Assembly (NCBI RefSeq): GCF_001542915.1
Contig: NZ_LNNH01000032.1
Span: 62,001-126,000 of the forward strand
DNA: 64,000 nt
Source of the DNA: Peribacillus simplex
GTDB taxonomy: Bacteria > Bacillota > Bacilli > Bacillales > DSM-1321
Direction of reading: 5' to 3'
Under the pieces are notes generated by a model. That model did not search any database, was not told where the DNA came from, and saw only the letters and a list, made by a program, of their open reading frames with translations. Both the position numbers and the translations under genes were made by a program. Below, piece by piece: positions 22,936 through 56,762 of the stretch (position 1 is the first letter of the stretch; each line of letters begins with the position of its first letter).

Positions 22936-22951
22936 ATCGGGTAAGCCCGAT
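22936..22951 (-). terminator. Probable terminator of the sugar-utilisation operon
   Basis: On the minus strand ATCGGG-CTTA-CCCGAT is followed directly by UUUUUA. The stem is short (6 bp) but GC-rich, and lies about 100 bases past the nanE remnant, at the 3' end of the long operon. Confidence 0.6.
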
Positions 22952-23057
22952 CTGCCCAGCCTCACAGGGAAAAGAGCTATCCCTTAACTGTCATTAGGAT
23001 AACTCCGGTAATTACAGGATGTGAACCCCAACTTGGATCTTCCGGCTTATGCTTGAT

Positions 23058-23325
23058 TCAAGTTGAGTTTCTCATCGATTGAATTTCTTTGACAAAGCGC
23101 TCGGTAAACCCCGACTGAATGCGCTTTAAAGCCTATCGGCGGTGTTGACATTCCCTTCGGGGATGACTGGTAGATGAAAATCTCCACGGCATTAGCACGA
23201 ATCCCAACGGGCCCGCCTCTTTTTGCGGCATCTGCCATTCGTTTCATATTATCAGATCCACATAATGGTTACCCTTCTATAGCCTGACAAGATACAACTA
23301 ACCCTTTTTTGATTGTTGTTAACAT
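23058..23325 (-). pseudogene. nanE: Decayed nanE (N-acetylmannosamine-6-phosphate 2-epimerase)
   Basis: The start is intact: GGGGGAGGGAC then ATG 23325, overlapping the end of the DUF4127 gene. Translation gives a NanE-like N-terminus (LTTIKKGLVVSCQAIEG), then an in-frame TAA at 23269-23271 where family members read xPL, then PLCGSDNMKRMADAAKRGG and PVGIRANAVE. After that most of the barrel is missing: a frame-shifted fragment VIPEGNVNTADRL and, in the third frame, TERFVKEIQSM before a TGA at 23058-23060 match the C-terminal part. A stop, at least one large deletion and two frame changes make it non-functional. NanE would have made GlcNAc-6-P from ManNAc-6-P. Confidence 0.8.
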
Positions 23326-24854
23326 GTCCCTCCCCCTCTCCTATCAATTTGTAAGACCATTCCACATTCAAACATTCGATTCCAAGGTGCGAATGTGGTG
23401 ATTTTTTCAAGTTTGATTCCTTTAAAACTATGTAAAATCATTTCATGGTAACGCCTTATTAATCGATTATCTCTCTCTCTACTTACAACTCCCGCTTCAT
23501 TGTTCAGATTAAAGTACGTGAGATTATAATTGGGGAGAAAATCGGCTACCATGTCCATTCGAACTTCCGTTTGATAAAAATAGTCATCTAGTAAATGATA
23601 CATGATATTTTCCTCGATGATGTCCGCCTTGCCATTTAGAGCGACAACACCTTGACAAATGGTTGAACCAAGTGTGTTACAATTCGTATTCCATCCTTTA
23701 TAGGACAACAATTTATCCAGTATTCGTTCTTCATCCAAAAGTGTGATCAACTCCCGATCTCCCCCGTTCGCATAGGCAGCATCGGCAACCACCACTTTTT
23801 TTCCGGATTCTATAAACGTCCTGATAGAATCAACAAAGGTTAACATATTTCGAAAACTTGTGTATGTAATATCTTTTTTATGTTGATCCCATGCCTCTTG
23901 CATAATACGGCCTGGCGTATTATAAGCAAGTATTAAATCCGCATCTTCAGCGCTCGTTACTAATTGACAGCCTGCCGCTAGTACATGTGATTTTAAACTT
24001 TCAGCGTAAGGGCGATCCTCATACATGGGAATCAATTGGGGCCCAAGCGAACTACTCCAAATCGGATAAATCTTTGGCCTTTTCCCCATCCATTCATTAT
24101 ATACACGCGCCAATAAAGTCGCTCCCACCTCGTCCGCTCCAGGATACATATGCACTTGCTTATACAAGCGTAATTGTTCTATCTTCTCAGCAACCTTTTG
24201 TTGGTCCATTGCCGTGTATCCATATTCTGCGCTATCATCTTGAGGAATTGATAAGAATGTAATTACACCTTCCTTGACAAGCTCTAACATACTCGTGTTT
24301 ATCATGGAATTGAATGCTCGTCTCGATTCATAGTCTTGTATGTATGACTTGGGCAACAAGGATACAATCTCTTGTAGCTGTCTCTGTTCTTCTTCAGACA
24401 ACTTCTCGCGAATTTTTTTATCTGATAAGTAGGCACGCATGAAAATTTCACGGCCCCACTTTTCATAATAGTCGGGTTCTTCATCACTTGAGCTGTATTT
24501 TGGCGTACGCATAATTAAATTGGAGGCATAAATGGGCACGTGTGGATATGCTTTATGTAGGGTTCGCATTCGTTCCATCCACATAGTCACAGTATCTATT
24601 GATAAATCATGCAAACGGGAAGGCAGTAAACCTCCATACACCAACATATCGATGCTTAAAATCATAGCATCTGCGTTACTCGCAGCTTTAGTCAACCAAT
24701 TCCATAACTGGCTCGTATTAGCTGCAACTTTTTTGGCCCCGAGTAATTCTTCACTTGGGAGGATTACTTCCATATTTGATGAAGAACGGGCAATGTTTTT
24801 TATGTAATCAACATTACATGGTCGCTCATCGATGGGTACGTAGACAATTTTCAT
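23319..24854 (-). CDS. DUF4127 family protein
   Basis: A 511-residue, probably cytosolic protein starting MKIVYVPIDERPCNVDY, the typical opening of DUF4127 proteins, with further family-like segments MLVYGGLLPSRLHD, YASNLIMRTPKYSSSDEEPDYY, FLSIPQDDSAEYGYTAMDQ, ADEVGATLLAR and ADAAYANGGDRELI. Asp- and Asn-rich clusters suggest a metal or sugar-phosphate site, but no function is established to my knowledge. It starts 4 bases after the acetyl-esterase stop (AAGGAG upstream) and its last codons overlap the start of the nanE remnant, so it belongs to the sugar operon. Confidence 0.8.
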   Translation of the reverse strand: MKIVYVPIDERPCNVDYIKNIARSSSNMEVILPSEELLGAKKVAANTSQLWNWLTKAASNADAMILSIDMLVYGGLLPSRLHDLSIDTVTMWMERMRTLHKAYPHVPIYASNLIMRTPKYSSSDEEPDYYEKWGREIFMRAYLSDKKIREKLSEEEQRQLQEIVSLLPKSYIQDYESRRAFNSMINTSMLELVKEGVITFLSIPQDDSAEYGYTAMDQQKVAEKIEQLRLYKQVHMYPGADEVGATLLARVYNEWMGKRPKIYPIWSSSLGPQLIPMYEDRPYAESLKSHVLAAGCQLVTSAEDADLILAYNTPGRIMQEAWDQHKKDITYTSFRNMLTFVDSIRTFIESGKKVVVADAAYANGGDRELITLLDEERILDKLLSYKGWNTNCNTLGSTICQGVVALNGKADIIEENIMYHLLDDYFYQTEVRMDMVADFLPNYNLTYFNLNNEAGVVSRERDNRLIRRYHEMILHSFKGIKLEKITTFAPWNRMFECGMVLQIDRRGGGTC

Positions 24855-24858
24855 GCGA

Positions 24859-25827
24859 TTACTCCTTTTTAAACTTCTTTCTTGAAGCGATGAATTGAAG
24901 TTTCCTTTCTACGTGTATAGCTGGTAGCTCATGTCCAAATTCTGGATATACTTGGATGTGCTTCTCACCGCCTAAATGATGATATAAGGCAAATCCGCTG
25001 GAAGGCGGGCACACCCTATCTTCCAATCCTACTCCGATTAATGAAGGGCACGAAACAAAACTCGCTAGATTCATACAATCGACATAGCTCAAAGCGTCAA
25101 AAACTGCTGAACGGTTTTTCTGTAAGGGATCATGCAGTTTAAAATAATGATTAACTTCCCGATAAGGACCTTCTGTTGATAGTTGAATGGATCGTTTAAA
25201 ATGAGTAAGAAAAGGAACATCAGCTAGTAAGTACGAGATGCCTTCTTGCAAGGCAGCTGTCGCAACTGCTAGAGCGCCCCCCTGACTTCCTCCCTCTACA
25301 AAAACATCCGTCTTTCCTGATAATTCCCTTATAACATCAACGCTTCTATAACAATCCATATACACATAACTGAAGTAATAGTTATCCGGATCTGTAATTC
25401 CAAGTGTCATCCAACCAGAGGAACCTCCATTCTTGTATGGATTGTGATCGGGTGAACGAACATTTTGCCCTCTGACATCGACTAACATCACGGGAATACC
25501 TTGAATTAAATATTTGAATGCGTAGTGCGGCTGAAGAGTGTTCCAATTATATCCGTGAAAGATTACAGCTGCAGGCGATTTTGGATGAACATCTTTCTCA
25601 GGTTTTAAATAGGACGCATGTATACGTGAATTTCTGAACCCATTGAAGGTCACATCATACAGTTCTACGCCTGGAACATAATAGGAAACTGGTTCTATAA
25701 CAATATTTAAACCTTGCAGGGCACTTTCATTCTTCCGATTATTCCAAAACTCTTCAAAATCTTTTTTCTTTGTTTGTTCAGGTCGATACATCTGCAGTTG
25801 CTCAAGTGATAAATCAATGAGATTCAA
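24859..25827 (-). CDS. CE7 acetyl-xylan esterase / cephalosporin-C deacetylase
   Basis: The 322-residue alpha/beta hydrolase has the length of carbohydrate-esterase family 7 enzymes. The family motifs are present: RGQ (DVRGQNVRS), the nucleophile elbow GGSQGG (~residue 182) and the catalytic His in a C-terminal HE pair (FGHELPA); the catalytic Asp is in GLEDRVCPPS. CE7 enzymes are intracellular and remove acetyl groups from short acetylated oligosaccharides. Lacking a signal peptide, it would act on oligosaccharides already imported by the ABC transporter of this operon. Confidence 0.9.
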   Translation of the reverse strand: MNLIDLSLEQLQMYRPEQTKKKDFEEFWNNRKNESALQGLNIVIEPVSYYVPGVELYDVTFNGFRNSRIHASYLKPEKDVHPKSPAAVIFHGYNWNTLQPHYAFKYLIQGIPVMLVDVRGQNVRSPDHNPYKNGGSSGWMTLGITDPDNYYFSYVYMDCYRSVDVIRELSGKTDVFVEGGSQGGALAVATAALQEGISYLLADVPFLTHFKRSIQLSTEGPYREVNHYFKLHDPLQKNRSAVFDALSYVDCMNLASFVSCPSLIGVGLEDRVCPPSSGFALYHHLGGEKHIQVYPEFGHELPAIHVERKLQFIASRKKFKKE

Positions 25828-25906
25828 CGTGATTCCTCCATAAGCAGGTGACCAGTATTTCAGTAGGTGTTGTGGAATGGTACGGCATTCGGCTTCATCA
25901 CTTCTT

Positions 25907-27586
25907 TTACATAATATTTTTTTGGCTGATCACTTCACCATTATTTTGCATTTCCTTTAACAGGACATCCAGTAAGTAAAATGCACACACTTCACTAGCT
26001 GAATGACTATATCCTTGTATATCATCAGTGGCAGGAACGAGCAGGTGAATATCAGAAACAAGCGCGACAGGAGAGTCTTGTTGACTCGTAATTCCAATGG
26101 TCGTTGAGCCCATATTCTTAGCGCTTTCCATCATGTTCACTATATGGGCATCATAGCCTGATGTACTTAGACCGATTACAACCGTTTCTCGATCTAGTAC
26201 GTGCGTAGATATCTCCATTTGGTAGAGATCTGAGAATGCGTCTGCTTCCATACCAAGTTTCATTAGCTTATATTTTAATTGCTTGGCAACAAGGGTCATT
26301 TCGCCTGCACCGTATAGAAAAACTTTTTTTGCTGACACTAATCGATCTTTAAATTGCTTAATATCTTCTAACTCATTGAGCGTATCGAATTTGTTGAACA
26401 TTCTCGTATAAGCTTGTTTCACTGAACTCAAGCTCGTGTTTTCTGTTTGTTCGTATAATCGAGTGCTCACAATGGCTTCTTTCGCCATTAATCGCAGTTT
26501 ATTGTAAGACCCGATTTCTAGCTTCTTGCAAAATCTTGTAATCGTCGCCTCTGACAAATTTAATTGACGTGACATCTCGGATATCGTTTTGTTTGGCATG
26601 CTTTCTAAATTTAAAATGATGAATTTGGCGATATTTTGCTCGTGTTTCGTTAATTTATGTGTATTGGATTCGATAATCGTCGTGATGCTTTTTAACGGTT
26701 TTAAAGACTCTTGGAGCAAAAAGTGACGAAGCGCTCCGATCATGCCTGCATCATTAAGATTCCGGGCGATTTCAATTTGCACTTTATCTAACACGGCAGG
26801 CATGATATCTTTTTCCAACTGTGCCATGATAAGGGGATATAAATACTCTTTTTGTGCTGTAATCCCCCCGCCAATTATGATCATTTCTGGATTCATCATA
26901 TAAGCGATGGTTGTGATTCCTTTGGCCAAATAGTAAACGAGACGATTGATTTCCTGGATGCAAATCTCATCATCCAACTGTGCAAGAGCAAAAATTTCTT
27001 TCCCATCAATCTCACTTTCAGGTATTCCCTTACGCTTGGCAACATTTCTCACTAATATTCTTGTTGAAGCTAAATCTTGAAATTGACTTCCTTCTATTGG
27101 GATGTAACCGATCTCGCCAGCACTAAAGCTGTGTCCAGCCTGCAATTTATTGTCAATGATATAACTGCCGCCGATACCGGTCCCTATCGTTAGACAAAAC
27201 AAACTTTTCGCATCCCTGCCAGTACCAATCCACGACTCCGCTAACCCTGCGCAGTTCACGTCATTTTCAACTTCAACTGGTAATTGAAAAAATGTTTCTA
27301 GTTCTTTTTTCAATGGGGTACCTGTATAATCCGGAATGAAGGAAGAGGCATATAAAATCTCCCCTTTATTCGAATCCACTTGGCCGGCCGTGCTAATGCA
27401 AATACCGCTAATCGTATGCTGATCAATGAGGGTCTCCCCTAATCGTTTTACCTTATCAAGAATCGCCGGGCCACCCAAATATGCTTCAGTTAGGCATTCA
27501 TATTTCTCTACAAATGTCCCTTCTTCAGTTAGCACACCGTATTTGAGTATGGTTCCCCCGATATCAAATGCTAAAAATCTCCTCAA
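25907..27586 (-). CDS. Fused ROK-family sugar kinase and RpiR-family transcriptional regulator
   Basis: About 559 residues with two families in one chain. Residues 1-290 form a ROK domain: FDIGGT phosphate loop, catalytic Asp in VENDVNCAG, and TIGTGIGG; the usual CxCGxxGCxE zinc motif is absent. Residues ~300-375 form an RpiR helix-turn-helix (ISEMSRQLNLSEATITRFCKKL), and the remainder is a SIS sugar-phosphate-binding domain (VFLYGAGEMTLVAKQ, GLSTSGYDAHI). It could phosphorylate an imported sugar and sense the product. I choose TTG 27586 (AAGGTGAG upstream) over ATG 27601, which would include that Shine-Dalgarno. It lies 27 bases after the mannosidase stop is passed, in the same operon. Confidence 0.85.
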   Translation of the reverse strand: MRRFLAFDIGGTILKYGVLTEEGTFVEKYECLTEAYLGGPAILDKVKRLGETLIDQHTISGICISTAGQVDSNKGEILYASSFIPDYTGTPLKKELETFFQLPVEVENDVNCAGLAESWIGTGRDAKSLFCLTIGTGIGGSYIIDNKLQAGHSFSAGEIGYIPIEGSQFQDLASTRILVRNVAKRKGIPESEIDGKEIFALAQLDDEICIQEINRLVYYLAKGITTIAYMMNPEMIIIGGGITAQKEYLYPLIMAQLEKDIMPAVLDKVQIEIARNLNDAGMIGALRHFLLQESLKPLKSITTIIESNTHKLTKHEQNIAKFIILNLESMPNKTISEMSRQLNLSEATITRFCKKLEIGSYNKLRLMAKEAIVSTRLYEQTENTSLSSVKQAYTRMFNKFDTLNELEDIKQFKDRLVSAKKVFLYGAGEMTLVAKQLKYKLMKLGMEADAFSDLYQMEISTHVLDRETVVIGLSTSGYDAHIVNMMESAKNMGSTTIGITSQQDSPVALVSDIHLLVPATDDIQGYSHSASEVCAFYLLDVLLKEMQNNGEVISQKNIM

Positions 27587-27628
27587 AATTCTCACCTTCA
27601 TTTCTAAGAAAAGAGCAATCGTTGGTCG

Positions 27629-30178
27629 TTAATTCCCTTTCCTTTTCACGCGAATCGTTTTTATTTGTTTAGGATTAAATGCTATCGTTATTTGTGCTGA
27701 TGTTTCATATTTTTCAGCTAATATTCCTGTAAAATCCACTTCATAAATGGAGCTTGGTTCAAACCCAAGATTTAATCGTGTCAATTGCCGTTCATTAGTT
27801 GGATTAAACATGCGAATATCAAATGTATTCTCTTCTTTTTGTATGAAAGAAGAGAATGCAATGGTAGAGGAAGATTGATTGAACAACTTCCCTCCCTCTT
27901 TCAATACATATGATTGTTGGGTCAAGATTTGCTGACGCATTACTTTTGTAGTATTCAATGACTGATGACTTGTCCCTAAAACCAAGCCATATTCAAATTC
28001 ATACGTCCCTAAACACTGAGCACCTGGCGTTTCGAATCCAGGTGCTGCACCATTTCCACGGGTACGCAAATCTCGTCTTGATAACCAACCAACACTTCTT
28101 ACCATCGTTAGGAATATGAAATCATTTCCTTGAAAATGATCCACTTCATACTCTTGCAAACCCCTATGCACAAGTTGATGCTCCATTGCCAATACAGTTG
28201 AAAGGGTTGGATATTGGTTCATGACCGCTTCTTTATTTTTAGGCATATCCCATACCTTTTCCCTAATCGTTTGCCGTTTTACTAAATCAAAAGCTGTATC
28301 CCCATAGCTTTCATCTGCTTTTGATGTTGCAAAGCCAATTCGAAGCTTTTGGTCTTTTGCCTGATTATGAATTACTGTTTTGAATGATATAAATCGTCGA
28401 CCTTGATGAAGTGTGATTGTCGTCGTCATTTTATTCACAACATATTCTTCGCTTGGACCTGTTCGATTTTCATTCAAGGAAGCTGGTAACTTCATTTCAT
28501 AATGAAGCGTCATGGATTGATATGATTTCCCTTTTACAATATCGCTAACACCCTTTACAATCGCCAGGCTGCATGGATCATTGACAGGCGGCGAATAGTT
28601 ATACGCATCCCCCGCATCTAATGAAGAAACAAATTGATGCTGATTTTCATAGGCTTTATTTCTTTCTTTATCGGTTATGATTAATCCAGTTTCGCTGCAT
28701 TGGATATGATAAAACTCATTTTCAATTGCGTTTTCATCCACAATTTCAATTAACTCGGCTTCCATGCAAACCCGCTCGATCCGAATTCTTTTGGTCTCCA
28801 CTCCATCAAAGGGTAAGACGAAAGAAACATCATATATTACGTATTCAGCATAATGCGGTTCAGCTAAAATATGGCGTAAAAACACTTCCCGTTTTTCTTT
28901 TTTTATAAGATCAAACGCTATTTCTTCTGAATCGTACATGAGGGTGATTCCACCTAGATCGAGAGACGCTGGAATAAGTATCTCGGTTTTCACAGGATAG
29001 ATGTCTGCAACTGGTGTGTTATTCATTACATAAAGAAAGTCGTTTTCTATATTTTCCTGCAAGAATTCAAAAGGATATTCATTATTCAATGTGTCTTTAG
29101 AAAATTGACGAATCGCACTTAATACTTTTTGTGTCCTCGTTTCCATCTCAGTATGAACTTCATCTACACTACAACCACAAATGCTATCATGAGGCTGGTT
29201 TTGCAAAATGAGTTTCCATATATGTTCGATGAAGTGGGCTGAATTCGTGTTTCCGTTTGTCCATACATTCAATGCTTCCATAGTACCGATGGCTTGATCT
29301 TCACACATTTGATTTTGGTTTTTCAGATAAGAACGTGTAGAATACACGCCTGGCAAAATAAATATTTTTGAAGGGTCCCGTTGCTCACCAACGATTGTTT
29401 CTACCGGTTCATTTCCTGCGAATGATTGCACATAATGGGACATTAATGATTGCTTAAATTCAATTTCCTTATAGCAGGCATTTAATTCATTGATCCGTTC
29501 ATTTATATCTGGACATGTATAGGTATGATCCGCTCCGTTCATGACTAATGCACGTCCATACGTCAAATATGGGGAATTGCTTTCTAAATATGTTTTGGTC
29601 TTTTCAACATAGTCATCATGCTTCAAGAAGGTCTGATAATATCCTTCAAAAAGAGGCAGCACAAATGTAAAGACCTTACTTCCATCTGCACCTTCCCACG
29701 TATTTTCGAATGCACTTGAAATGGCCCCTCGCCATACGATGGCCGTATCAATATTGTATCCCTTGAAAATTTGGGGCATTTGGCTGTTATGGCCAAATGT
29801 GTCTGGCAAATAACCAATATTATAAGCAGAATTATAGGCTTTTGATTTATTAATGCCAATTTCCAGGTTTTTCAAGATCGATTCACCGGAAACGAGAAAC
29901 TCATCAGCTAACAAGTACCAAGGTCCGACTTCAATCTTCCCTTCTTTAATGAATGAAACAAGACGCTTATATTCCTCCTGGCTTACAATTTCTTGATAGT
30001 CCTCTAAAACGATGGTTTGTCCATCCAGAAAAAAATTATCAAGATTTCCAGAATCCAATAACCCTTGGACATAACGCAGCCCATTTCGCAATTTATAACG
30101 GAATTCTTCAAACGTTTCGTACCATTCACGATCCCAATGTGTATGATTTAACACATGTACCTCTTTAATGTTTTTCAT
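27629..30178 (-). CDS. GH38 alpha-mannosidase
   Basis: The 849-residue cytosolic glycosidase opens with the family-38 zinc motif NHTHWDREW (ligands His14 and Asp16). The nucleophile is Asp126 in LPDTFGHN, and a further zinc His is in QPHDSICG near residue 340. The middle domain and beta-sandwich C-terminus (YEVDFTGILAEKYETS) complete the family architecture; the length fits bacterial members such as MngB. It hydrolyses alpha-mannosides, or alpha-mannosyl sugar acids in MngB-type enzymes, releasing mannose or a derivative. No signal peptide: substrate must be imported. It starts 4 bases after the oxidoreductase gene with GGAGTG upstream. Confidence 0.93.
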   Translation of the reverse strand: MKNIKEVHVLNHTHWDREWYETFEEFRYKLRNGLRYVQGLLDSGNLDNFFLDGQTIVLEDYQEIVSQEEYKRLVSFIKEGKIEVGPWYLLADEFLVSGESILKNLEIGINKSKAYNSAYNIGYLPDTFGHNSQMPQIFKGYNIDTAIVWRGAISSAFENTWEGADGSKVFTFVLPLFEGYYQTFLKHDDYVEKTKTYLESNSPYLTYGRALVMNGADHTYTCPDINERINELNACYKEIEFKQSLMSHYVQSFAGNEPVETIVGEQRDPSKIFILPGVYSTRSYLKNQNQMCEDQAIGTMEALNVWTNGNTNSAHFIEHIWKLILQNQPHDSICGCSVDEVHTEMETRTQKVLSAIRQFSKDTLNNEYPFEFLQENIENDFLYVMNNTPVADIYPVKTEILIPASLDLGGITLMYDSEEIAFDLIKKEKREVFLRHILAEPHYAEYVIYDVSFVLPFDGVETKRIRIERVCMEAELIEIVDENAIENEFYHIQCSETGLIITDKERNKAYENQHQFVSSLDAGDAYNYSPPVNDPCSLAIVKGVSDIVKGKSYQSMTLHYEMKLPASLNENRTGPSEEYVVNKMTTTITLHQGRRFISFKTVIHNQAKDQKLRIGFATSKADESYGDTAFDLVKRQTIREKVWDMPKNKEAVMNQYPTLSTVLAMEHQLVHRGLQEYEVDHFQGNDFIFLTMVRSVGWLSRRDLRTRGNGAAPGFETPGAQCLGTYEFEYGLVLGTSHQSLNTTKVMRQQILTQQSYVLKEGGKLFNQSSSTIAFSSFIQKEENTFDIRMFNPTNERQLTRLNLGFEPSSIYEVDFTGILAEKYETSAQITIAFNPKQIKTIRVKRKGN

Positions 30179-30181
30179 ATT

Positions 30182-31540
30182 TCACTCCCCCATCTCAACA
30201 AGCTGTTGCTTAAGGAATGCGCCATCGATTTTATTGAGATCTACATTATGTGTAATGGAGTATGCGCACGCTAGCCCCGCTGCTTGTGCCATATCCCGAA
30301 TGGTCGGTTGGATACGCAGCGACGCCTGCATGAGAAATGTGCTTGAAACATGGCGGCCGACAATGATCAAGTTATTCACTTCATGGGTAATCAATGATCT
30401 GTATGGTATTTCGTAATACTCACCACGAGACAACCGAGCCTTTTCCACCTTTTCTTCACTGACGCTATGCACGTCAATATACCAATCGCCCCTTGCGATA
30501 CCGTCATTAAATCGGGCGCGGTTCACATAGTCCGTTTCCGATAAAACGTATTGGCCGATAATTCGGTACGATTCGCGAATGCCAAGCTGTGTTGCTTCCT
30601 TCAATAAGTAAGCATGCTTAAATCCAGGGATATAATTCGTTAAGAAGTTTGATAATCTGCGAATCATCATACGCCCTTTCGTAACTGCTTCCGAACGAAG
30701 AACAGGATCTGTCGTTTGATAAATATCAGGGATATGAGGGCAATTAAAAGACATGACTGTAGGTTTTCCAGGTTGAGTGAATGCTTGAAAATAACGCAAA
30801 TCTTCTTCCTGTAAATCTCCATTCCGTAAGCCTTTTTGAAAAAATGGTTCTAACACATGACCTTTTCCTGGAACCATTACGATCTCGAAGAACTTCGGGT
30901 TCTCAATTTTGCAAAACGTTTCGTTTCGAGATAAGATGAATTCCCGTAAAGCGGCTATATCAATGCCACCCATTTCGAACCGGAACGATATTTGCTGGTT
31001 TTGTCCGTCTTGGTTACCCGATTCAACTGGGACTGCAGCTGTTCTCGATAGAACCGCATCTGCTGTTGCATCGACAAATGTCTTTCCCTTGATCGCCACT
31101 AATCCGTTGCATGTGTTTACGATGATATGGGTAATTTGTTTGCCTTCTTTTAGACAATCTACATAATTGGCATCATATAATAGATGCCCACCACGCTCAA
31201 TAATCAACTGCTCCAATACATAGCTTAACGTTTCAACGTTAAACCAACTACAGGCAGTGGTCCCATCAAACGTATCGATTTTCTCTTTATGTAACCGCTC
31301 GATGATTAATTGATTCACACGCTGTCCTTTTACAAAAGTCGGCATCATCGGAGAAACTAACGCATTCGTTTGAGTACCTCCTAAAGAAATCGTTTTCTCT
31401 ATGACAAGTGTCTGTATGCCTTCGTCTAAAGCGGCGATCGCTGTTGCCGCCCCGCCTGTTCCTCCTCCAACCACAACGCAATCAATATCCCAAATAATCG
31501 GCAATTCCCGACCAAAAAATGAGATTGTTCCCACCTTCAC
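30182..31540 (-). CDS. FAD-dependent oxidoreductase (FAD_oxidored, PF12831-like)
   Basis: A 452-residue flavoprotein with an N-terminal dinucleotide motif DCVVVGGGTGGAATAIAALDEG and a GGTQTNALV segment typical of the FAD_oxidored family; a second FAD contact is VDATADAVLSRTAAV and the C-terminal part has NLIIVGRHVSSTFLMQASLR. Family members are often encoded among glycoside hydrolases and sugar ABC transporters, but substrates are mostly unknown; oxidation of a sugar hydroxyl is a reasonable inference. The frame starts at GTG 31540; GTG 31534 has a better-spaced GAGGTGA. It sits between the permease genes and the mannosidase. Confidence 0.82.
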   Translation of the reverse strand: MKVGTISFFGRELPIIWDIDCVVVGGGTGGAATAIAALDEGIQTLVIEKTISLGGTQTNALVSPMMPTFVKGQRVNQLIIERLHKEKIDTFDGTTACSWFNVETLSYVLEQLIIERGGHLLYDANYVDCLKEGKQITHIIVNTCNGLVAIKGKTFVDATADAVLSRTAAVPVESGNQDGQNQQISFRFEMGGIDIAALREFILSRNETFCKIENPKFFEIVMVPGKGHVLEPFFQKGLRNGDLQEEDLRYFQAFTQPGKPTVMSFNCPHIPDIYQTTDPVLRSEAVTKGRMMIRRLSNFLTNYIPGFKHAYLLKEATQLGIRESYRIIGQYVLSETDYVNRARFNDGIARGDWYIDVHSVSEEKVEKARLSRGEYYEIPYRSLITHEVNNLIIVGRHVSSTFLMQASLRIQPTIRDMAQAAGLACAYSITHNVDLNKIDGAFLKQQLVEMGE

Positions 31541-31615
31541 TCACCTCTTCCATTTAGAATTCGTGTCGTTTTTTTTAGACAGTTCAGCATCAATTTACCT
31601 ATTAAATCATTACAA

Positions 31616-32443
31616 TTATCCCTTTACCGCACCGTCCGTTGCCCCGGAAATAAAGTATTTTTGCAGCCAGATAAAAATTAATAAAGTAGGAATTGTCGTT
31701 AATATCGAAGCCGCACTTATTAACTTTAGATTTGAGCCATCGAAATTTTGTGAAAGCTGAGCTAAACCAATCGACAGGGTATACATGCTGCTTTCCGTGG
31801 AATTAAGCAACGGCCATAAATAATCCCCCCACGTACCCATGAAGGTGAAGATGGCCAGTGTAACCAAAGTAGGTTTCACTAGTGGTAAGGCAACTAAATA
31901 CCACACTTTAAATTTATTCGCACCGTCCAGATAGGCTGACTCTTCAAGCTCTTTTGGGATTCTTAAAAAGGCTTGGCGCATCAAGAATATACCAAAGGCC
32001 GTTGATACTTGCATGACGACCAAGCCAATATGTGTATTTTGTAAGCCAAGGCTACCGGCAAGTTGGAATAAAGGCGCCATATACAGTTGAAAAGGCACCA
32101 TCATCGTGGAAATGATTATTGCCAACACAACACTTCTCCCCCTAAAGTCCATACGTGCTAGCGGGTAGGCAGCCAAACTGCAAAATAACAAATTTAGTGG
32201 AATCGCTATTACCGTTACCACCAGGGTGTTTAAAAAGTACCTACCGAAATTGGCTTTATCAAAAGCGGTTACGAAGTTTTCTAGAGTAGGGGAAGCTGGA
32301 AGTATACTGCTGTAAATCCCTTCATTTGCTGCTTTTAATGACATGAACAAGGTAATCAAAAAAGGACCTACAGTGAGAATCGTGATAAAGATCATTAGAG
32401 TATAGAGCCACATTCTTTGATTGAATCGCTTCGATTTCATCAT
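31616..32443 (-). CDS. Sugar ABC transporter permease (MalG/CUT1 type)
   Basis: A 275-residue membrane protein with six hydrophobic segments. The cytoplasmic EAA loop that docks the ATPase is present (EESAYLDGANKFKVWYLVALPLVKP, shortened here to EESAYLDGA). N-terminal FITILTVGPFLITLFMSLK is typical of the second CUT1 permease. With the gene at 32460 it forms the membrane channel for the sugar bound by the lipoprotein at 33465. No ATP-binding subunit is encoded anywhere in the operon; in bacilli a shared MsmX-type ATPase usually serves such systems. ATG 32443 or the next codon may start it. Confidence 0.93.
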   Translation of the reverse strand: MMKSKRFNQRMWLYTLMIFITILTVGPFLITLFMSLKAANEGIYSSILPASPTLENFVTAFDKANFGRYFLNTLVVTVIAIPLNLLFCSLAAYPLARMDFRGRSVVLAIIISTMMVPFQLYMAPLFQLAGSLGLQNTHIGLVVMQVSTAFGIFLMRQAFLRIPKELEESAYLDGANKFKVWYLVALPLVKPTLVTLAIFTFMGTWGDYLWPLLNSTESSMYTLSIGLAQLSQNFDGSNLKLISAASILTTIPTLLIFIWLQKYFISGATDGAVKG

Positions 32444-32459
32444 GTTCTCTCCTATCTAT

Positions 32460-33401
32460 TTACGCTCTTAAATCATCTTCGCGGCTACTAGTTAATTTCA
32501 TTTGAAGTAAGGATGCCCCAATAGCGAGAACTAATAAGACTATTCCTGCTGCCGAAGCGATGCTGACATCTAAATTCATGAATTTTTTGTATATATACAT
32601 AACAAGAGTGGTCGTCGCACCAGAAGGCCCGCCACCTGTGGTTAAGGCAATTTCTTCAAACACCTTCATACCGGCGATGATTGTCATGACAGATACCAAT
32701 GTAACAGACGGTGCAAGCATGGGAATGGTAATGTTCCTAAATTGTTGGAAAACGGAAGCACCATCGATACTGGCAGATTCATACACATCCTTTGGGATGG
32801 ATTGCAGACCTGCTAAATAGATGATCATATAATATCCAAGCCCTTTCCAAACCGTGATCATCGATACTGCGAATAACGCTGTGGAAGATTGAATGAGTAG
32901 GTTTGTTGGAGAATCAAAGAGACCTAGCTTAACTAAAATCCCTGAAATGATTCCACTTTGTGAGTACAGCATTTTCCACATCAATGCCGCTACAACCATT
33001 GGTGTTACAACGGGCAAATAGTAGAGAATGCGGAACGTGGAAACGCCCCTGATCTTTTGGTTCACCAACACCGCCAAAATCATCGGTAAAAAGACATTCA
33101 GTGGCAGCACGATGATTAAGAAAATGAACGTGTTCAATAACGCCATCCAAAAATTAGCATCCGTAAAAATCTCTTTAAAGTTACTTAATCCAACGAATTC
33201 ACCCGTACCCGCAATGATTTTATAGTCCAATAAACTCCATTGAAAGGCTTCTAAGATGGGTATGATGAGGAATGTTCCCAAAATTAAAAGTGATGGTATT
33301 AAAAAGAACCACGGTGCCACATGTCGCATACTTAGTCTACTTTTCTTTTGCGTGCCGACTTTCACTTTAGCATTCGGAAGTACAACAGGTCCCCTGCTCA
33401 T
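32460..33401 (-). CDS. Sugar ABC transporter permease (MalF/CUT1 type)
   Basis: A 313-residue membrane protein with about six hydrophobic segments and the EAA loop YESASIDGASVFQQFRNITIPML. A basic N-terminal tail precedes the first segment (HVAPWFFLIPSLLILGTFLI). It is the first permease of a heterodimeric CUT1 importer and starts 63 bases after the binding-protein gene, across a hairpin. Its stop and the start of the second permease are 16 bases apart, so translation is probably coupled loosely within one transcript. Confidence 0.93.
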   Translation of the reverse strand: MSRGPVVLPNAKVKVGTQKKSRLSMRHVAPWFFLIPSLLILGTFLIIPILEAFQWSLLDYKIIAGTGEFVGLSNFKEIFTDANFWMALLNTFIFLIIVLPLNVFLPMILAVLVNQKIRGVSTFRILYYLPVVTPMVVAALMWKMLYSQSGIISGILVKLGLFDSPTNLLIQSSTALFAVSMITVWKGLGYYMIIYLAGLQSIPKDVYESASIDGASVFQQFRNITIPMLAPSVTLVSVMTIIAGMKVFEEIALTTGGGPSGATTTLVMYIYKKFMNLDVSIASAAGIVLLVLAIGASLLQMKLTSSREDDLRA

Positions 33402-33426
33402 GTTTCTCTCTCCTTTTAAAAAAGAA

Positions 33427-33450
33427 GATAGCTTTTTTTACAAAGCTATC
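33427..33450 (-). terminator. Intra-operon hairpin between binding protein and permeases
   Basis: A 9-bp perfect stem GATAGCTTT / AAAGCTATC is followed on the minus strand by a U-rich run. Placed directly after the binding-protein gene, it fits the common arrangement in which partial termination or 3' stabilisation yields more binding protein than permease. Confidence 0.65.
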
Positions 33451-33464
33451 CGCTTTTCCCTTCA

Positions 33465-34793
33465 TTAAAATGTCACTTTTTCATCTGACTTTTCAAATGC
33501 TTTATTCCATTCTGATGATAGTTGTTTGACAGCTTCTTCAGGTGTTAGCTTGCCTTGTAAGTTTTTAACAAAAATATTCTTAGTCGATTCACGTAATTCA
33601 GCGCTGCTTTCCGTTGGTGGAATTAGTACCTTTGCACGCTCTAAAGACTCCGATGCCTGCAGCATACCAAGTGCCTTCGGTGATTCCCCAGGATTTTTGA
33701 AGTAATCATCCTCTAAAGAATCTTTCGTAGCAGGTAATACTGTTCCTGCCGTTTTCGAAAATTCCAATTGGTTCTCTGCATTGGTAACAAATTCAGCCAG
33801 TGCAACAGCCGCTTCTTTGTTTTTTGTTTTTGCCGGTACTGCGAAGTTCATGACCGCAACGTTCACTGGTGCACTTTCAGACTCTAACGGTTGACCGGCT
33901 TTGGATGCTTTATATACGTCTGGCGCACCAGATTCTATTGGTCCTAAAAACGTTACGCCACCTTCCAGGAATGATGTATTACCCGCCATGAACAGCTCTT
34001 GGCCCGTTTTTAACGATCCTTCCGCTGTTTCTTGAGGAATTAATCCTTCCTTATACATCTTTTGTGTATAGGTGAAATAGTCGATAATGTCTTTGTTAGT
34101 TTCAAACACTGCTTTTCCATCTTTCACCATCGGTTTTCCGTTTGAAAGGGAAACCATTTTTTCCATAATCGTATTTCCGTCATTGATTACTGGATAATAA
34201 GAAGGTTTTCCTGTTTTGTCCGTTATAGCCTTTGCCGTATCATAGATGCCTTTTATCGTTGTCGGCAATTCTTTAATTCCTGCTTGGTCGAAATGATCTC
34301 CGTTATACCAAGAAATTGTTGTCGTTAAATACCATGGCAATGCGTACAACTTATCTTCATATATACCTGATTTGTATGGGCCTTCTACGAACGAATTTTT
34401 CGTTTTATCACTTACCATATCCGTTAAGTCCAATAAACCGCCTTGAGCTGCAATATTAGACATATAGTGTGGATTTAAGTTGACCACATCCGGAACATCT
34501 TTACCCGTAAGCGATGTTAGTACTTTTTGTTCCATTTCATTTTGGGGAATGTCCTCTATCGTGACATCCAAATCAGGATGAAGCTTTTCAAATTTTTTCT
34601 CAAGCTCATCAAAATATGTATCAAATGGCTCCCCTGCCAATGATGCCGTCCATAATGTTACCTCACCGCTCAACTCTCCAGATTTCGATGTGCTCGTCTT
34701 CTCGGCCCCTTCCTTATTACACCCTGCCAATAAACTCATTGAAAGTGCAGCCGCCAAAGTACCAGTAACGACCTTATTAATCTGTTTTCCCAT
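33465..34793 (-). CDS. Extracellular sugar-binding lipoprotein of a CUT1 ABC transporter
   Basis: The 442-residue protein has a lipoprotein signal peptide with lipobox LLAGC (Cys ~26) and then a Ser/Thr/Lys-rich linker. The mature part has the family-1 solute-binding pattern: VTLWTASLAGEPFDTYFDEL, a ligand-binding Trp-rich region ALPWYLTTTISWYN, and VALAEFVTNAENQLEF near the C-terminus. It would capture an oligosaccharide and deliver it to the two permeases downstream. First gene of the operon: a sigma-A-like promoter and a cre site lie just upstream; GGGGGA precedes the ATG. Confidence 0.93.
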   Translation of the reverse strand: MGKQINKVVTGTLAAALSMSLLAGCNKEGAEKTSTSKSGELSGEVTLWTASLAGEPFDTYFDELEKKFEKLHPDLDVTIEDIPQNEMEQKVLTSLTGKDVPDVVNLNPHYMSNIAAQGGLLDLTDMVSDKTKNSFVEGPYKSGIYEDKLYALPWYLTTTISWYNGDHFDQAGIKELPTTIKGIYDTAKAITDKTGKPSYYPVINDGNTIMEKMVSLSNGKPMVKDGKAVFETNKDIIDYFTYTQKMYKEGLIPQETAEGSLKTGQELFMAGNTSFLEGGVTFLGPIESGAPDVYKASKAGQPLESESAPVNVAVMNFAVPAKTKNKEAAVALAEFVTNAENQLEFSKTAGTVLPATKDSLEDDYFKNPGESPKALGMLQASESLERAKVLIPPTESSAELRESTKNIFVKNLQGKLTPEEAVKQLSSEWNKAFEKSDEKVTF

Positions 34794-34817
34794 TTCCAGT
34801 CCCCCTTTTAATCTACT

Positions 34818-34831
34818 TGAAAACGTTTTCT
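34818..34831. promoter_or_regulatory. cre site (CcpA) at the sugar operon promoter
   Basis: TGAAAACGTTTTCT matches the catabolite-responsive element consensus TGWNANCGNTNWCA at 13 of 14 positions (final base differs). It lies directly downstream of the predicted -10 on the minus strand, a position where CcpA represses. Confidence 0.75.
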
Positions 34832-34839
34832 TATCAATA

Positions 34840-34868
34840 ATAATAAAAGAGAATTAATTCCATTTCAA
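34840..34868 (-). promoter_or_regulatory. Sigma-A-like promoter of the sugar operon
   Basis: Minus-strand -35 TTGAAA (34868-34863) and -10 TATTAT (34845-34840) are separated by exactly 17 bases. Transcription would begin near 34833, within a few bases of the cre site, and reach the binding-protein ATG after about 40 bases. Confidence 0.65.
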
Positions 34869-34905
34869 CGGTTTTCGAAAATTAATTTTTAAAATTTATA
34901 AATAT

Positions 34906-34920
34906 TGAAAATAATTTTCA
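34906..34920. promoter_or_regulatory. Perfect palindrome, candidate RpiR-type operator
   Basis: TGAAAAT-A-ATTTTCA is a perfect 15-base palindrome about 40 bases upstream of the operon's predicted -35. A near-copy lies at 35104-35118 and a degenerate one at about 34877-34890. The fused RpiR regulator of the operon is the natural candidate ligand; this is inference from proximity and from the TGAAA/TTTCA form. Confidence 0.45.
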
Positions 34921-35103
34921 TTTTGATCTTTCTTATTGAATCCCTCGTTTAATTCGGTCCAAGCCTTTTGTATCGAAGACCATCTCAAAACTATACTTAC
35001 ACTTCGCAGAGTCCGCATCAAACTGGCCTGTTATTTAAAGGCTGTTATTCACCAAGTAATGCAATGTGGATGATTGCCCCTCCCTTGAACGTTTTTTCAT
35101 TAA

Positions 35104-35118
35104 TGAAAATTAATTTCA
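35104..35118. promoter_or_regulatory. Near-palindrome, second candidate RpiR-type operator
   Basis: TGAAAATTAATTTCA has the same TGAAA/TTTCA ends and 15-base length as the site at 34906 and lies on the side of the divergent glycosidase gene. Two similar sites, one per promoter, suggest shared control. Confidence 0.4.
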
Positions 35119-35189
35119 TAAAAATGAATAAAAGAAAAATTATTTAAAAATCCAGTTGTTAAATATGTAAACTTTGTTTATAGTTTCCT

Positions 35190-35203
35190 TGAAAGCGTTT
35201 TCT
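35190..35203. promoter_or_regulatory. cre site (CcpA) at the GH10-like glycosidase promoter
   Basis: TGAAAGCGTTTTCT matches the cre consensus at 13 of 14 positions, with the same final mismatch as the site at 34818. A TATAAT (35204-35209) follows immediately, so CcpA would overlap RNA polymerase. Confidence 0.75.
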
Positions 35204-35302
35204 TATAATTCCGCCTATGATACCCACTTTGCCTTTCATCCGTTTGTCCACCTAGAACTAACTACAGCAGGGTAACCAATAAAACGAAAAGGAGCACATA
35301 TT

Positions 35303-37678
35303 ATGAGTAGAAAATTGAGAGTGATCAATAGCTCTATTTTTGCTTCAAGCCTAGTTTTATCATCTTTCGGATCGGGGAGCAGCGTTACAGCCCAACATCC
35401 AAGCACTTCTGTCGATATATTGACCATCAAGGATCATTCTGGGGATCACATGATCATTGGCGGGACGAACCAACTTGCCAACGAAAACAAATTGATCGTT
35501 TTTAATGACACCTTCAGCTATTACACGGAAACAAAGAAAGGCAGTAAAGAAGTCATCCTTGAAAAGAAGGGATTAAATACATATCGGGTGAAAGCTAAGA
35601 CCGATGGTGATAGCCCGATTCCCCGGAATGGCCTTGTTCTTTCAACCGGTGCTAAGACAACTGCCGAGATAGATTCCTTCCTATCACAATTAGAAAGCGG
35701 AGAAACAGTTACCTTATTGGAACCTGTCGTGAAGAAGGAAGAAAAAGTCGCTAATGCAATCGACCCTACAGCGGCATCCAATCCAGCCGGAGCACCATTC
35801 GATGGATTTAGAGGCCCTGATCAATTGATTGTATATCACCCATCTTTTGGAGAAACAACTAAAACCAATGCATATGGTTACGAGATTACCGTTGAAAATG
35901 GGTTCGTTACGAAATTAGGAGGCGGAGGTTCCCGGATTCCGGCAAACGGATATGTTGTGAGCGGACATGGGATAGCAGCGAAATGGCTTACATCCCATTC
36001 GATTATAGGCTCTAAAGTCACTGTAGATGAAAATGGCTCTGTAAAAATCATTCAAGATGTTGATAGTTATGCATATCAAAGTAAGCAAGCCATTAAACAA
36101 GCTAAAGCATCTATGGAAAAATCCAAAACTATTTATTTGGATGTTGCTATGAATAAAGCGAAGAAGTCGATCTCCAATTCTGAAAAACTATTAATTGAAG
36201 CAGAGACTATAAAAGAAAGAGACCCCGTTAAAGCACTTGACCTCACACGGCAAGCGACCCAGTCTGCTTATGACGCCTACTATTATTCTTTGCCATCGAA
36301 TGTAGCGGAACAACGCGCCATTTGGTATCGTCCGGAGGAAACGACACTTGAGGGAGTCAAACAAGTACTTGACCGTATGGAAGAGGCGGGTTTCAATTCA
36401 GTCTATCTTGAAACTACATTCCATGGCTATACGATTTATCCGAGTAAAGTGATGGAGCAGTATGGTATGCCAGGACAGCACCCAAGGTTTCAGAATGGCG
36501 AATACGGTCGTTATGGTAACGATTTGTTAGCTGCCTATGTGAAAGAAGGAAGAAAGCGAGGACTTACGGTTCAAGCATGGACAGATGGATTTATGGTCGG
36601 TGAAAGCAGTTTAGGAACTCCGCCAGCATTTAAAAACCACCCTGAATGGGCAGCGATCCAACGACAAAACAATACAGGAGAACCACTCCCTGATACATCA
36701 AACAAATACTATTGGTTGGATATCGCACAACCAGAAGTACAGAAATTCATGCTAGCCATATACAAGGAAATGCAGCTAAACTACGATATAAAAGGTTTGA
36801 ATATAGATTATATGCGCTATCCGCATCATGATTTCGAGAAAAGCTACGGCTTTAGCACAAAAGTTCGTGCTTTGTATAAGGAACGGACTGGTAGTGATCC
36901 ATTCACCCTCAACCCAGCGACAAACCCAGAACAATGGGAAGATTGGACAACTTGGTTGCGTACAAAAGAAAATGAATTCGTTGAGAAGTTGCATGATCAA
37001 TCTAAAGATATTAACCAGAAATTCATGATGACAGCAACACCTGAACCAGGGCCAGAAGCGGTATTGATCAGCGATTGGAAAGATGATATAGATGGTGTCA
37101 TCCCACAGGCGTATGGGCATGACTTCAATAGTATTCAAAAAACCGTTCAAGACAGCAAAAAGCTAATGCCTGCTGGGACGATGTACTATACGGGAATATA
37201 TTCTTTCTACCATCACCTTGATGAAATGATGAATGTGGATGATGTCCTATCTGCAAAACATGGTACGTCTGGAGTGAATATGTTCGCTTTCGGACAAGCC
37301 AGTGCCCCTTCAGTTGATGCATTAGGGAAAGGACCGTGGCGTGAAAAGGCTCTAAACCCTGGCGAAGAACCGATTTTGGCTGCTCAAACCGTATTAACAG
37401 AAATCGAAAGACAAATAAGTGACGTATATTTGGAGCAAGGAGCTCTCGATAAAAAAGAAGGTAAGGCTTTAAAACAATCTCTCAATCGATTAAATAAAGC
37501 CATTGATAAAAATCCAGAACACATGGATAAAGAGTTCAATTCAGTCATGGAACTAATCGATAAGTTAATGGACAAAAATAAGCTTAAACCAGTTGTAGGA
37601 GATAGGATAAAAAAACAACTCGGAGAAGCAAAAGAATGGATGGACTACTCATTGAACCATCAAAATCCTTCAAATTGA
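35303..37678 (+). CDS. Secreted GH10-like (GHL10/YngK-type) glycoside hydrolase
   Basis: A 791-residue protein with a signal peptide (basic start, hydrophobic SSIFASSLVLSSFGSG, cleavage near TAQ, residue ~31). Residues ~32-235 hold two related stretches (LIVFNDTFSYYTET and LIVYHPSFGETTKT, each followed by a PRNG or PANG turn), a duplicated module I do not recognise. After a helical linker, residues ~330-680 match the glycosyl-hydrolase-like 10 barrel: RAIWYRPEETTLEGV, GFNSVYLET, GLTVQAWTDGF, LNIDYMRYP and DIDGVIPQAY. A charged helical tail ends it. It probably cleaves a glycan outside the cell for the divergent import operon. Confidence 0.85.
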   Translation: MSRKLRVINSSIFASSLVLSSFGSGSSVTAQHPSTSVDILTIKDHSGDHMIIGGTNQLANENKLIVFNDTFSYYTETKKGSKEVILEKKGLNTYRVKAKTDGDSPIPRNGLVLSTGAKTTAEIDSFLSQLESGETVTLLEPVVKKEEKVANAIDPTAASNPAGAPFDGFRGPDQLIVYHPSFGETTKTNAYGYEITVENGFVTKLGGGGSRIPANGYVVSGHGIAAKWLTSHSIIGSKVTVDENGSVKIIQDVDSYAYQSKQAIKQAKASMEKSKTIYLDVAMNKAKKSISNSEKLLIEAETIKERDPVKALDLTRQATQSAYDAYYYSLPSNVAEQRAIWYRPEETTLEGVKQVLDRMEEAGFNSVYLETTFHGYTIYPSKVMEQYGMPGQHPRFQNGEYGRYGNDLLAAYVKEGRKRGLTVQAWTDGFMVGESSLGTPPAFKNHPEWAAIQRQNNTGEPLPDTSNKYYWLDIAQPEVQKFMLAIYKEMQLNYDIKGLNIDYMRYPHHDFEKSYGFSTKVRALYKERTGSDPFTLNPATNPEQWEDWTTWLRTKENEFVEKLHDQSKDINQKFMMTATPEPGPEAVLISDWKDDIDGVIPQAYGHDFNSIQKTVQDSKKLMPAGTMYYTGIYSFYHHLDEMMNVDDVLSAKHGTSGVNMFAFGQASAPSVDALGKGPWREKALNPGEEPILAAQTVLTEIERQISDVYLEQGALDKKEGKALKQSLNRLNKAIDKNPEHMDKEFNSVMELIDKLMDKNKLKPVVGDRIKKQLGEAKEWMDYSLNHQNPSN

Positions 37679-44558: not shown

Positions 44559-44636
44559 CAAAAATTCACCCGCCATGTTTTTTAGTAATAAGTTTAGGTT
44601 ACCCTGCTAAAGCAAAAAAACAGACAAAAAATAAAA

Positions 44637-44673: not shown

Positions 44674-44710
44674 CAATTTTTTTGTCTAACAAGCTCCACC
44701 TTCCTTCTCA

Positions 44711-44840
44711 TATAACGCTTACGAGGTTAGCTGTCGGATTCGGACCTAAGAGTAGCCCTACCTTGGAAGGATTCACCCCTTGGATTATACAATAATCCCT
44801 ATAACGGGTCCCCCGCACCAAATGGTTTAAGCGATTTAGA
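44711..44840 (-). promoter_or_regulatory. c-di-AMP riboswitch (ydaO-yuaA class)
   Basis: Read on the minus strand the segment has the class's conserved blocks in order: ATCGCTTAA, GGTGCGGGGGACCC, GGGGTGAATCC, TAGGGC, CTCTTAGGTCCGAATCC, GACAGCTAACCTCGTAAGCG. The first and last blocks pair (CGCTTA / TAAGCG) to close the aptamer. It precedes a potassium importer, the best-known target of this class. Recognition is from memory of the consensus, but the match is extensive. Confidence 0.93.
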
Positions 44841-55963: not shown

Positions 55964-55992
55964 ATCTACTTCTCCTCATTAAATATTTTTAA

Positions 55993-56721: not shown

Positions 56722-56762
56722 TGTTAGTTTCCTTCCTTAAACCCAACAAAAAGATGAATTTC

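What the first reader, a model, noticed from the sequence alone, without database searches (positions are those of the whole stretch)
22936..37678. Glycan-utilisation system combining CUT1 importer, FAD oxidoreductase, GH38, ROK-RpiR fusion, CE7 and DUF4127
A nine-gene minus-strand operon with near-contiguous reading frames is divergent from a secreted GH10-like glycosidase. The order suggests outside cleavage, import, then intracellular deacetylation, oxidation and alpha-mannoside hydrolysis, and phosphorylation by a kinase that is also the regulator. DUF4127 and the oxidoreductase have no known substrates, and I know of no characterised pathway with this full set. The sequence shows the gene set; the pathway is inference.
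Basis: partly seen in the sequence, partly recalled or inferred. Interest (0 to 1): 0.72.

Follow-up and report, generated by a model that had tools for sequence, protein, structure and literature searches.

The report
Bacterial ManNAc-glycan utilisation gene cluster
A soil bacterium carries a conserved gene set that appears to import and break down a rare amino-sugar (N-acetylmannosamine) glycan, using two partner enzymes of unknown chemistry and a sugar kinase fused to the gene switch.

Summary
The gene set is real: eight intact minus-strand genes, not nine, divergent from a secreted GHL10 enzyme. The ninth "gene" is a decayed nanE (ManNAc-6-P epimerase), intact in Peribacillus muralis. The neighbourhood is conserved: a PF12831 flavoprotein lies near DUF4127 in 24/25 loci of the same operon type and 20/20 loci with a divergent DUF4127, against 0/20 other importer loci; NanE in 17/25 and 10/20 against 0/20. 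GH38 and CE7 are optional. The ROK half resembles N-acetylmannosamine kinase more than any other solved kinase. A 15-bp palindrome occurs twice in the whole genome, both times between the divergent genes, and recurs in relatives. In the kinase–RpiR fusion the phosphosugar loop is lost (0/26 rows) while kinase and DNA-binding parts stay conserved; separate regulators mostly keep it (13/15). Best reading: a ManNAc-glycan catabolic operon, nan-like but fed by DUF4127 plus flavoprotein instead of sialic-acid lyase, with alpha-mannose as an optional branch. DUF4127 has a confident predicted structure without a clear PDB counterpart, and no paper in the held library names it. Substrate and chemistry are inferred.

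The parts
23060..23325 (-). nanE (N-acetylmannosamine-6-phosphate 2-epimerase) pseudogene: 5' part with an in-frame stop, large internal deletion, frame-shifted 3' remnants; matching downstream flank goes on to about 22970
   Evidence: tblastn 85% over 48 aa to the intact L007 gene; short 3' matches; same in the same-species genome
23319..24854 (-). DUF4127 protein (PF13552), 511 aa; AF2 model pLDDT 93, no clear PDB fold match
24859..25827 (-). CE7 / AXE1 deacetylase, 322 aa
   Evidence: RGQ, GGSQGG, HE motifs
25907..27601 (-). ROK kinase fused to RpiR regulator (HTH_6 + SIS), 564 aa
27629..30178 (-). GH38 alpha-mannosidase family enzyme, 849 aa
30182..31540 (-). PF12831 FAD-dependent oxidoreductase, 452 aa
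31616..32443 (-). CUT1 ABC permease
32460..33401 (-). CUT1 ABC permease
33426..33451 (-). 10-bp hairpin with T run between SBP and permease genes (terminator-like, possible expression step-down; the scan as a whole finds no more such sites than shuffles)
33465..34793 (-). solute-binding lipoprotein (SBP_bac_1/8; LAGC lipobox read by eye)
34818..34831 (+). cre-like box, just downstream of a predicted operon promoter
   Evidence: (2 in 64 kb, 0.04 expected)
34906..34920 (.). 15-bp palindrome TGAAAWTWAWTTTCA, operon side; putative operator
35104..35118 (.). 15-bp palindrome, GHL10 side; putative operator
35190..35203 (+). cre-like box, just downstream of a predicted GHL10 promoter
35303..37678 (+). 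secreted GHL10 enzyme, 791 aa

Best explanation
This is a catabolic locus for an N-acetylmannosamine-containing glycan, most likely from a bacterial cell wall or exopolysaccharide. Secreted GHL10 cuts the polymer; the CUT1 transporter imports the fragments; in the cytoplasm CE7 removes O-acetyl groups and GH38 trims alpha-mannose residues where present; the constant pair PF12831 flavoprotein + DUF4127 frees or converts the core amino sugar; the ROK domain phosphorylates ManNAc, and NanE turns ManNAc-6-P into GlcNAc-6-P. In this species the local nanE is dead and one of two PTS-linked copies may stand in. The ROK–RpiR fusion is the local switch and acts through two palindromes, one upstream of each predicted divergent promoter; because its SIS domain has lost the phosphosugar loop, the fused kinase is the likely sensor. 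CcpA probably represses through the cre boxes. Shown by computation: gene set, conservation, palindromes, nanE decay, loop loss. Inferred: every enzymatic step, the substrate, that the fusion binds the palindromes, the sensing role and CcpA action.
For: NanE is the gene next to DUF4127 in 15 of 25 fusion-type loci and is present in 17; it is also in 10 of 20 loci with a DUF4127 only 25-34% identical. Control importer loci: NanE 0/20, flavoprotein 0/20, against flavoprotein 24/25 and 20/20, on the same strand as DUF4127 wherever found. The flavoprotein link also holds in 8 of 22 loci from more distant Bacillota. ROK domain: N-acetylmannosamine kinase 5nck 194.7 bits, next 141.8. RpiR part: best PDB entries 8tx9 and 8v4v, which are S. 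pneumoniae NanR, a regulator that binds ManNAc-6-P (PMC12713135, abstract and passages). No sialic-acid lyase over cut-off in the genome. Palindrome at this locus only in the 5.1-Mb genome, reversed-pattern control 0; in the looser form TGAAAW5TTTCA, within 1 mismatch in 22 of 27 upstream regions, window included, 0.56 expected. GHL10 upstream of the SBP in 10/10 windows that hold that SBP, 0/20 controls. Mean pairwise identity in 26 fusion rows: ROK 0.74, HTH 0.75, SIS 0.46; in 15 separate RpiR proteins HTH 0.57, SIS 0.58.
Against: No enzyme, ligand or growth phenotype is tested. NanE was not seen in 8/25 and 10/20 loci within the DNA held, and six loci (L094, L101, L102, L104, L106, L108) have importer, flavoprotein and DUF4127 without NanE, GH38 or CE7, so the pair may serve other sugars. 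The local nanE is dead. The ROK domain is under both NanK cut-offs of NCBIfam. GH38 and PMI point to mannose, which this reading treats as a side branch. Of 22 distant loci 14 lack the flavoprotein near DUF4127 and 19 lack NanE; L021 has neither although it has the fusion-type operon. Of six NanR side-chain contacts with ManNAc-6-P that I could compare, the window protein keeps two (S179, S181); R148 is K, and S135, T184 and D160 differ (my reading; Tyr229 lies outside the alignment). The palindrome is not in the sister operons with separate regulators. Loci are related, so counts are not independent events.
Confidence: 0.55

Rival explanations
1. Alpha-mannoside system: the imported glycan is a mannan or N-glycan fragment, GH38 is the main enzyme, the ROK domain is a hexokinase, and NanE is a secondary addition.
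For: GH38 is a true family member with 393 bits to mannosylglycerate hydrolase and PDB matches to bacterial alpha-mannosidases. Mannose-6-P isomerase genes were found only in GH38 loci, 8/21 against 0/24.
Against: GH38 is missing in 24 of 45 loci; the ROK domain matches ManNAc kinase best; a second, distant ROK gene lies next to PMI in L005, L011 and L015 and is the better mannokinase candidate.
Confidence: 0.2
2. Sialic-acid-like catabolism: the cargo is a nonulosonic acid, with DUF4127 acting as an unusual lyase that yields ManNAc and the esterase removing O-acetyl groups.
For: NanE, ROK, RpiR and a sugar ABC importer are also parts of the pneumococcal nan system as I recall it; the regulator half is nearest to NanR; DUF4127 has six invariant arginines that could bind an acidic sugar.
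Confidence: 0.1
3. Wall salvage: the cluster uses the teichoic-acid linkage unit or a secondary wall polymer (ManNAc-GlcNAc) of its own or neighbouring cells.
For: GHL10 relative Cwp19 is a peptidoglycan lytic transglycosylase (PMC6016235, passages); GH84 lies near DUF4127 in six loci, L022, L026, L098, L119, L120, L132 (Pfam for L022 and L120); one rumen Bacilli locus places DUF4127 beside a GDPD phosphodiesterase, NAGPA phosphodiester glycosidase, GH20C and a GlcNAc 2-epimerase.
Against: The Cwp19 match is weak (E 7e-6); GH84 is in only 2/25 and 1/20 of groups A and B, not above control; catabolite boxes point to nutrition rather than upkeep; patchy presence in the family (4 of 43 genomes).
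Confidence: 0.15

Closest known systems
Pneumococcal nan (sialic acid) operons with NanE, NanK, RpiR-type NanR and an ABC importer (make-up recalled)
   Same: NanE, ROK kinase, RpiR regulator, sugar ABC importer; regulator half nearest to S. pneumoniae NanR
   Different: No NanA over cut-off in the genome; DUF4127 and PF12831 flavoprotein instead; kinase and regulator fused; SIS loop lost
Cwp19 / GHL10 family (PF02638)
   Same: The window's secreted enzyme passes the GHL10 cut-off and matches Cwp19
   Different: Weak similarity, activity untested
N-acetylmannosamine kinase 5nck (Fusobacterium nucleatum, organism recalled)
   Same: ROK domain over 283 residues at 194.7 bits; kinase motifs kept
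   Different: Fused to HTH_6 and SIS domains; under NCBIfam NanK cut-offs
PRK14101 bifunctional glucokinase/RpiR regulator
   Same: A sugar kinase fused to an RpiR regulator
   Different: The model matches only in its RpiR part here; its kinase is of another family (recalled)
Mannosylglycerate hydrolase MngB and bacterial GH38 mannosidases
   Same: GH38 domains present
   Different: 393 bits against a cut-off of 1138, so not MngB

Membership tests
nan-type ManNAc/sialate catabolic operon | NanE encoded in the operon | tested here: met
   Met for the operon type: intact in P. muralis and 17 of 25 loci. The window's own copy is broken.
nan-type ManNAc/sialate catabolic operon | NanA sialic acid lyase | tested here: not met
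   No match over cut-off in the genome
nan-type ManNAc/sialate catabolic operon | ManNAc kinase | tested here: inconclusive
   Best PDB match is N-acetylmannosamine kinase but below the NCBIfam NanK cut-offs (71.7 of 450; 83.1 of 283)
GH38 | Pfam N-terminal, middle and C-terminal domains | tested here: met
   Four Pfam models over cut-off: 103.1/25, 49.7/31.1, 45.7/25, 25.6/22 bits
Mannosylglycerate hydrolase (MngB) | NCBIfam equivalog cut-off | tested here: not met
   393.3 against 1138 bits
CE7 acetyl esterase | AXE1 domain and RGQ, GxSQGG, HE motifs (motifs recalled) | tested here: met
GHL10 | PF02638 over cut-off | tested here: met
   89.2 over 27.9 bits
GHL10 lytic transglycosylase (Cwp19-like) | 1,6-anhydro product from peptidoglycan | not testable with these tools
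   Needs enzyme assay
CUT1 sugar importer | SBP_bac_1/8 lipoprotein and two permeases | tested here: met
   no ATPase among the cluster's genes, as is usual where an MsmX-type ATPase is shared (recalled)
RpiR phosphosugar-sensing regulator | HTH_6 and SIS domains | tested here: met
RpiR phosphosugar-sensing regulator | SxSGxT phosphate loop in SIS | tested here: not met
   0 of 26 fusion rows; 13 of 15 separate RpiR proteins have it under a slightly looser pattern, and T at the last loop column is 13 of 15 there
DUF4127 (PF13552) | Pfam cut-off | tested here: met
   551.9 over 27 bits
Known glycoside hydrolase fold for DUF4127 | Confident structural match in PDB | tested here: not met
   Best E 1.8e-4 with TM-scores about 0.2; no PDB sequence match at E<=1

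The most novel reading that the evidence does not exclude
DUF4127 founds a new carbohydrate-active enzyme family with an unseen fold that works as a pair with a PF12831 flavoprotein: the flavin enzyme oxidises a sugar hydroxyl and DUF4127 then breaks the linkage or epimerises the oxidised amino sugar, releasing ManNAc without ordinary hydrolysis. The locus is switched by a sugar kinase that has taken over sensing from the SIS domain of its fused RpiR regulator.
Probability: 0.2. Interest if true: 0.85.

Novelty: new variant of a known kind. Interest (0 to 1): 0.62.

Why it matters
ManNAc is a common sugar of bacterial walls and capsules, yet I know of no described pathway for using it from a polymer (recalled; the few paper searches showed none in their listings). 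DUF4127 was found in 69 of 397 genomes sampled from the order and 63 of 398 from the phylum, own genome included, and no paper in the held library names it. The tight flavoprotein partnership gives a direct way to assign both. A kinase that took over sensing from an RpiR SIS domain would be a clear, testable case of sensor replacement.

Tried and rejected
Sialic-acid lyase: searched in the own genome, two matches, neither over cut-off. RNA element behind the ninth gene: Rfam at permissive threshold gave one chance-level match, E 0.49. DUF4127 fold: Foldseek against PDB gave xylose isomerases at E 1.8e-4 but TM about 0.2, which I treat as no match; the viral library gave one unnamed homologue, E 4e-31. 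The flavoprotein model was only fair (pLDDT 73) and matched many FAD enzymes of different chemistry, so it does not tell the reaction. My home-made GHL10 profile drifted and hit 8 of 20 controls (10/25 and 11/20 in groups A and B, no enrichment), so I used tblastn with the window protein instead. The GHL10/DUF4985 profile gave 9/25 and 11/20 against 2/20 controls (p 0.08 and 0.006). A first operator script mis-sliced upstream DNA for seven loci; one search replaces it. The palindrome was not found in group B (0 hits in 20 loci) and once in 22 group-C loci, so it belongs to the fusion type. L006 was left out as a near-copy of L005. In two group-C loci (L123, L131) my frame caller did not recover DUF4127 itself. 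Paper searches on NanE, N-acetylmannosaminidase, Cwp19, teichoic linkage units, PF12831, GHL10, DigH and ROK/RpiR listed no pathway like this one; I judged most by listing only.
Full report
What is in the window. Open frames and Pfam confirm eight intact minus-strand genes from 34793 down to 23319 and a divergent secreted gene at 35303-37678. From promoter outward: solute-binding lipoprotein, two CUT1 permeases, PF12831 flavoprotein, GH38, ROK–RpiR fusion, CE7, DUF4127. Gaps are 3 to 79 bp. The window lies in a 5.1-Mb draft genome; its DUF4127 is 93% identical to that of Peribacillus muralis.

The ninth gene. The stretch after DUF4127 has no long open frame. Its first 48 codons are 85% identical to the intact NanE of P. 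muralis, with one stop inside, followed by a deletion and displaced remnants of the 3' end. The same-species genome G025 has the same decay. NanE converts ManNAc-6-P to GlcNAc-6-P. The genome keeps two other nanE genes, one after a PTS EIIC/EIIB protein and one beside a mannose-family PTS with an RpiR gene nearby, so a stand-in is possible but not shown.

Conservation. One genome-contig scan with DUF4127 gave 44 loci. Twenty-five loci of Bacilli (group A: one Priestia plasmid locus and 24 named genomes) all hold the importer, the ROK–RpiR fusion and DUF4127. The flavoprotein is in 24 (not found in Lentibacillus, L021), NanE in 17, GH38 in 15, CE7 in 12. In Sporosarcina globispora, Oceanobacillus, Virgibacillus, Pseudogracilibacillus and Gracilibacillus the flavoprotein is a longer subtype placed after DUF4127 or NanE, in six of these loci with a PF00756-type esterase. 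Twenty further loci of the same order with a DUF4127 25-34% identical (group B) show much of the same set in other orders; where RpiR and ROK occur they are mostly separate neighbouring genes: flavoprotein 20/20, NanE 10/20, GH38 6/20, CE7 3/20. I picked group B from the 69 positive genomes, one locus a genome, to cover the lower-scoring types.

Control. For each of the 20 group-B genomes I took the best-scoring listed SBP_bac_8 place that was not at the DUF4127 locus and fetched about the same span (L152 is shorter). This favours maltose-type importers. Flavoprotein, NanE, GH38, CE7 and PMI were found in 0 of 20, ROK and RpiR in 1 of 20 each. Fisher p for the flavoprotein is 6.6e-12 (A) and 1.5e-11 (B), for NanE 1.1e-6 and 4.4e-4, for GH38 1.2e-5 and 0.02, for CE7 3.3e-4 and 0.23, for PMI 0.06 and 0.23. 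Loci are related, so these p values overstate independence. In 22 more distant loci (group C) the flavoprotein is near DUF4127 in 8 and NanE in 3; 14 lack the flavoprotein. L120 reads GHL10/DUF4985, flavoprotein, GNAT, DUF4127, GH84. In rumen Bacilli locus L031 DUF4127 sits among GH31, GDPD, GlcNAc 2-epimerase, NAGPA, GH20C and a CE2 esterase.

The secreted enzyme. Because most named loci end upstream of the SBP, I fetched upstream DNA for 20 genomes with a high-scoring DUF4127. GHL10 at 66-80% identity is present in 11, including 10 of 10 windows that hold the matching SBP; two more give short weak matches, seven none; none of 20 controls match at E<=1e-8. Windows without the SBP may lie beyond a shorter operon, so they say little. 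Its only PDB match at E<=0.001 is Cwp19, a peptidoglycan lytic transglycosylase (PMC6016235, passages seen). The Cwp19 structure paper PMC5765458 (passages seen) says precise substrates were yet to be determined.

DUF4127. The alignment of 34 sequences has 45 invariant columns, among them six arginines and many acidic residues. AlphaFold2 gives mean pLDDT 93 and pTM 0.93. Strands and helices alternate, with many invariants just after strands (my reading). No PDB sequence matches at E<=1, and Foldseek gives no convincing fold. No paper in the held open-access library mentions it.

Kinase and regulator. The ROK domain is nearest among solved structures to N-acetylmannosamine kinase 5nck, 194.7 bits against 141.8 for the next, yet below both NCBIfam NanK cut-offs. 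The RpiR half is nearest to 8tx9 and 8v4v, which the preprint PMC12713135 identifies as pneumococcal NanR, a ManNAc-6-P binder (abstract and passages). In a tree of 56 ROK rows the 26 fusions lie on one side of a branch at 100/100, so one origin is the simplest reading. Kinase motifs DxGGT, END, GTGIGG and GEIG are invariant in 27 rows, L006 included. The SIS domain is much less conserved (0.46) than ROK (0.74) and HTH (0.75), and the SxSGxT loop is absent in 26 of 26 rows; in 15 separate RpiR proteins from group B and C loci HTH and SIS are equally conserved (0.57, 0.58) and 13 keep the loop under a slightly looser pattern searched over the whole protein. Not all of those 15 are shown to belong to the DUF4127 operon. 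I infer that sensing passed to the kinase half.

Operators. TGAAAWTWAWTTTCA occurs at two places in the whole genome, both between the divergent genes; the reversed pattern occurs nowhere. In the looser form TGAAAW5TTTCA, 22 of 27 upstream regions, the window included, have it with at most one mismatch, 0.56 expected from shuffles; 19 of the 22 best matches lie 102-142 bp before the SBP gene. Nine loci had no upstream DNA and are not in the 27. Each palindrome lies 37 bp outside the -35 box of one predicted promoter, and a cre-like box lies 5-8 bp past its -10 box. I chose these two promoters among several candidates, and the scan finds no more promoters than shuffles do, so the equal spacing is suggestive only. 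The layout would fit activation by the fusion protein and catabolite repression.

Mannose branch. Mannose-6-P isomerase genes occur in 8 of 21 GH38 loci and 0 of 24 without GH38 (p 9e-4). A second ROK gene, distant from the fusion ROK in the tree, lies next to PMI in three group-A loci. So GH38 probably releases mannose from a decorated variant of the glycan.

Verdict. A conserved, regulated glycan-utilisation operon, most likely for a ManNAc-containing polymer. The open and interesting parts are the DUF4127-flavoprotein pair and the kinase-sensor fusion.

Noticed in passing
window 44700-44843 (-): c-di-AMP (ydaO/yuaA) riboswitch at 95.6 bits, upstream of a 614-aa amino acid permease-family gene at 42732-44576.
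   Followed up: partly
window 60785-63865 (-): 1026-aa protein with a pectate-lyase-like adhesive domain, an Ig-like domain and four stretches of the Endotoxin_C2 (Cry1Aa domain IV) family; looks like a surface adhesin.
   Followed up: no
window 54152-59609 (-): Polysaccharide biosynthesis genes, among them a Polysacc_synt_2 epimerase/dehydratase and a UDP-glucose/GDP-mannose dehydrogenase.
   Followed up: no
L005, L006: Two Priestia megaterium plasmids (167 and 147 kb) carry the whole operon with an extra ROK, manA, PTS, nanE and a second GHL10, so the set can probably move between genera.
   Followed up: partly
window GHL10 residues 165-249: A stretch shared with GH84 proteins of L022, L026 and L098 and GHL10/DUF4985 proteins of L033 and L107; possibly a common glycan-binding module of this system.
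   Followed up: no
L094, L101, L102, L104, L106, L108: A smaller operon of importer, a protein of about 230 aa (no Pfam match in L101, the one tested), flavoprotein and DUF4127; L094 has a histidine kinase and AraC-type response regulator upstream.
   Followed up: partly
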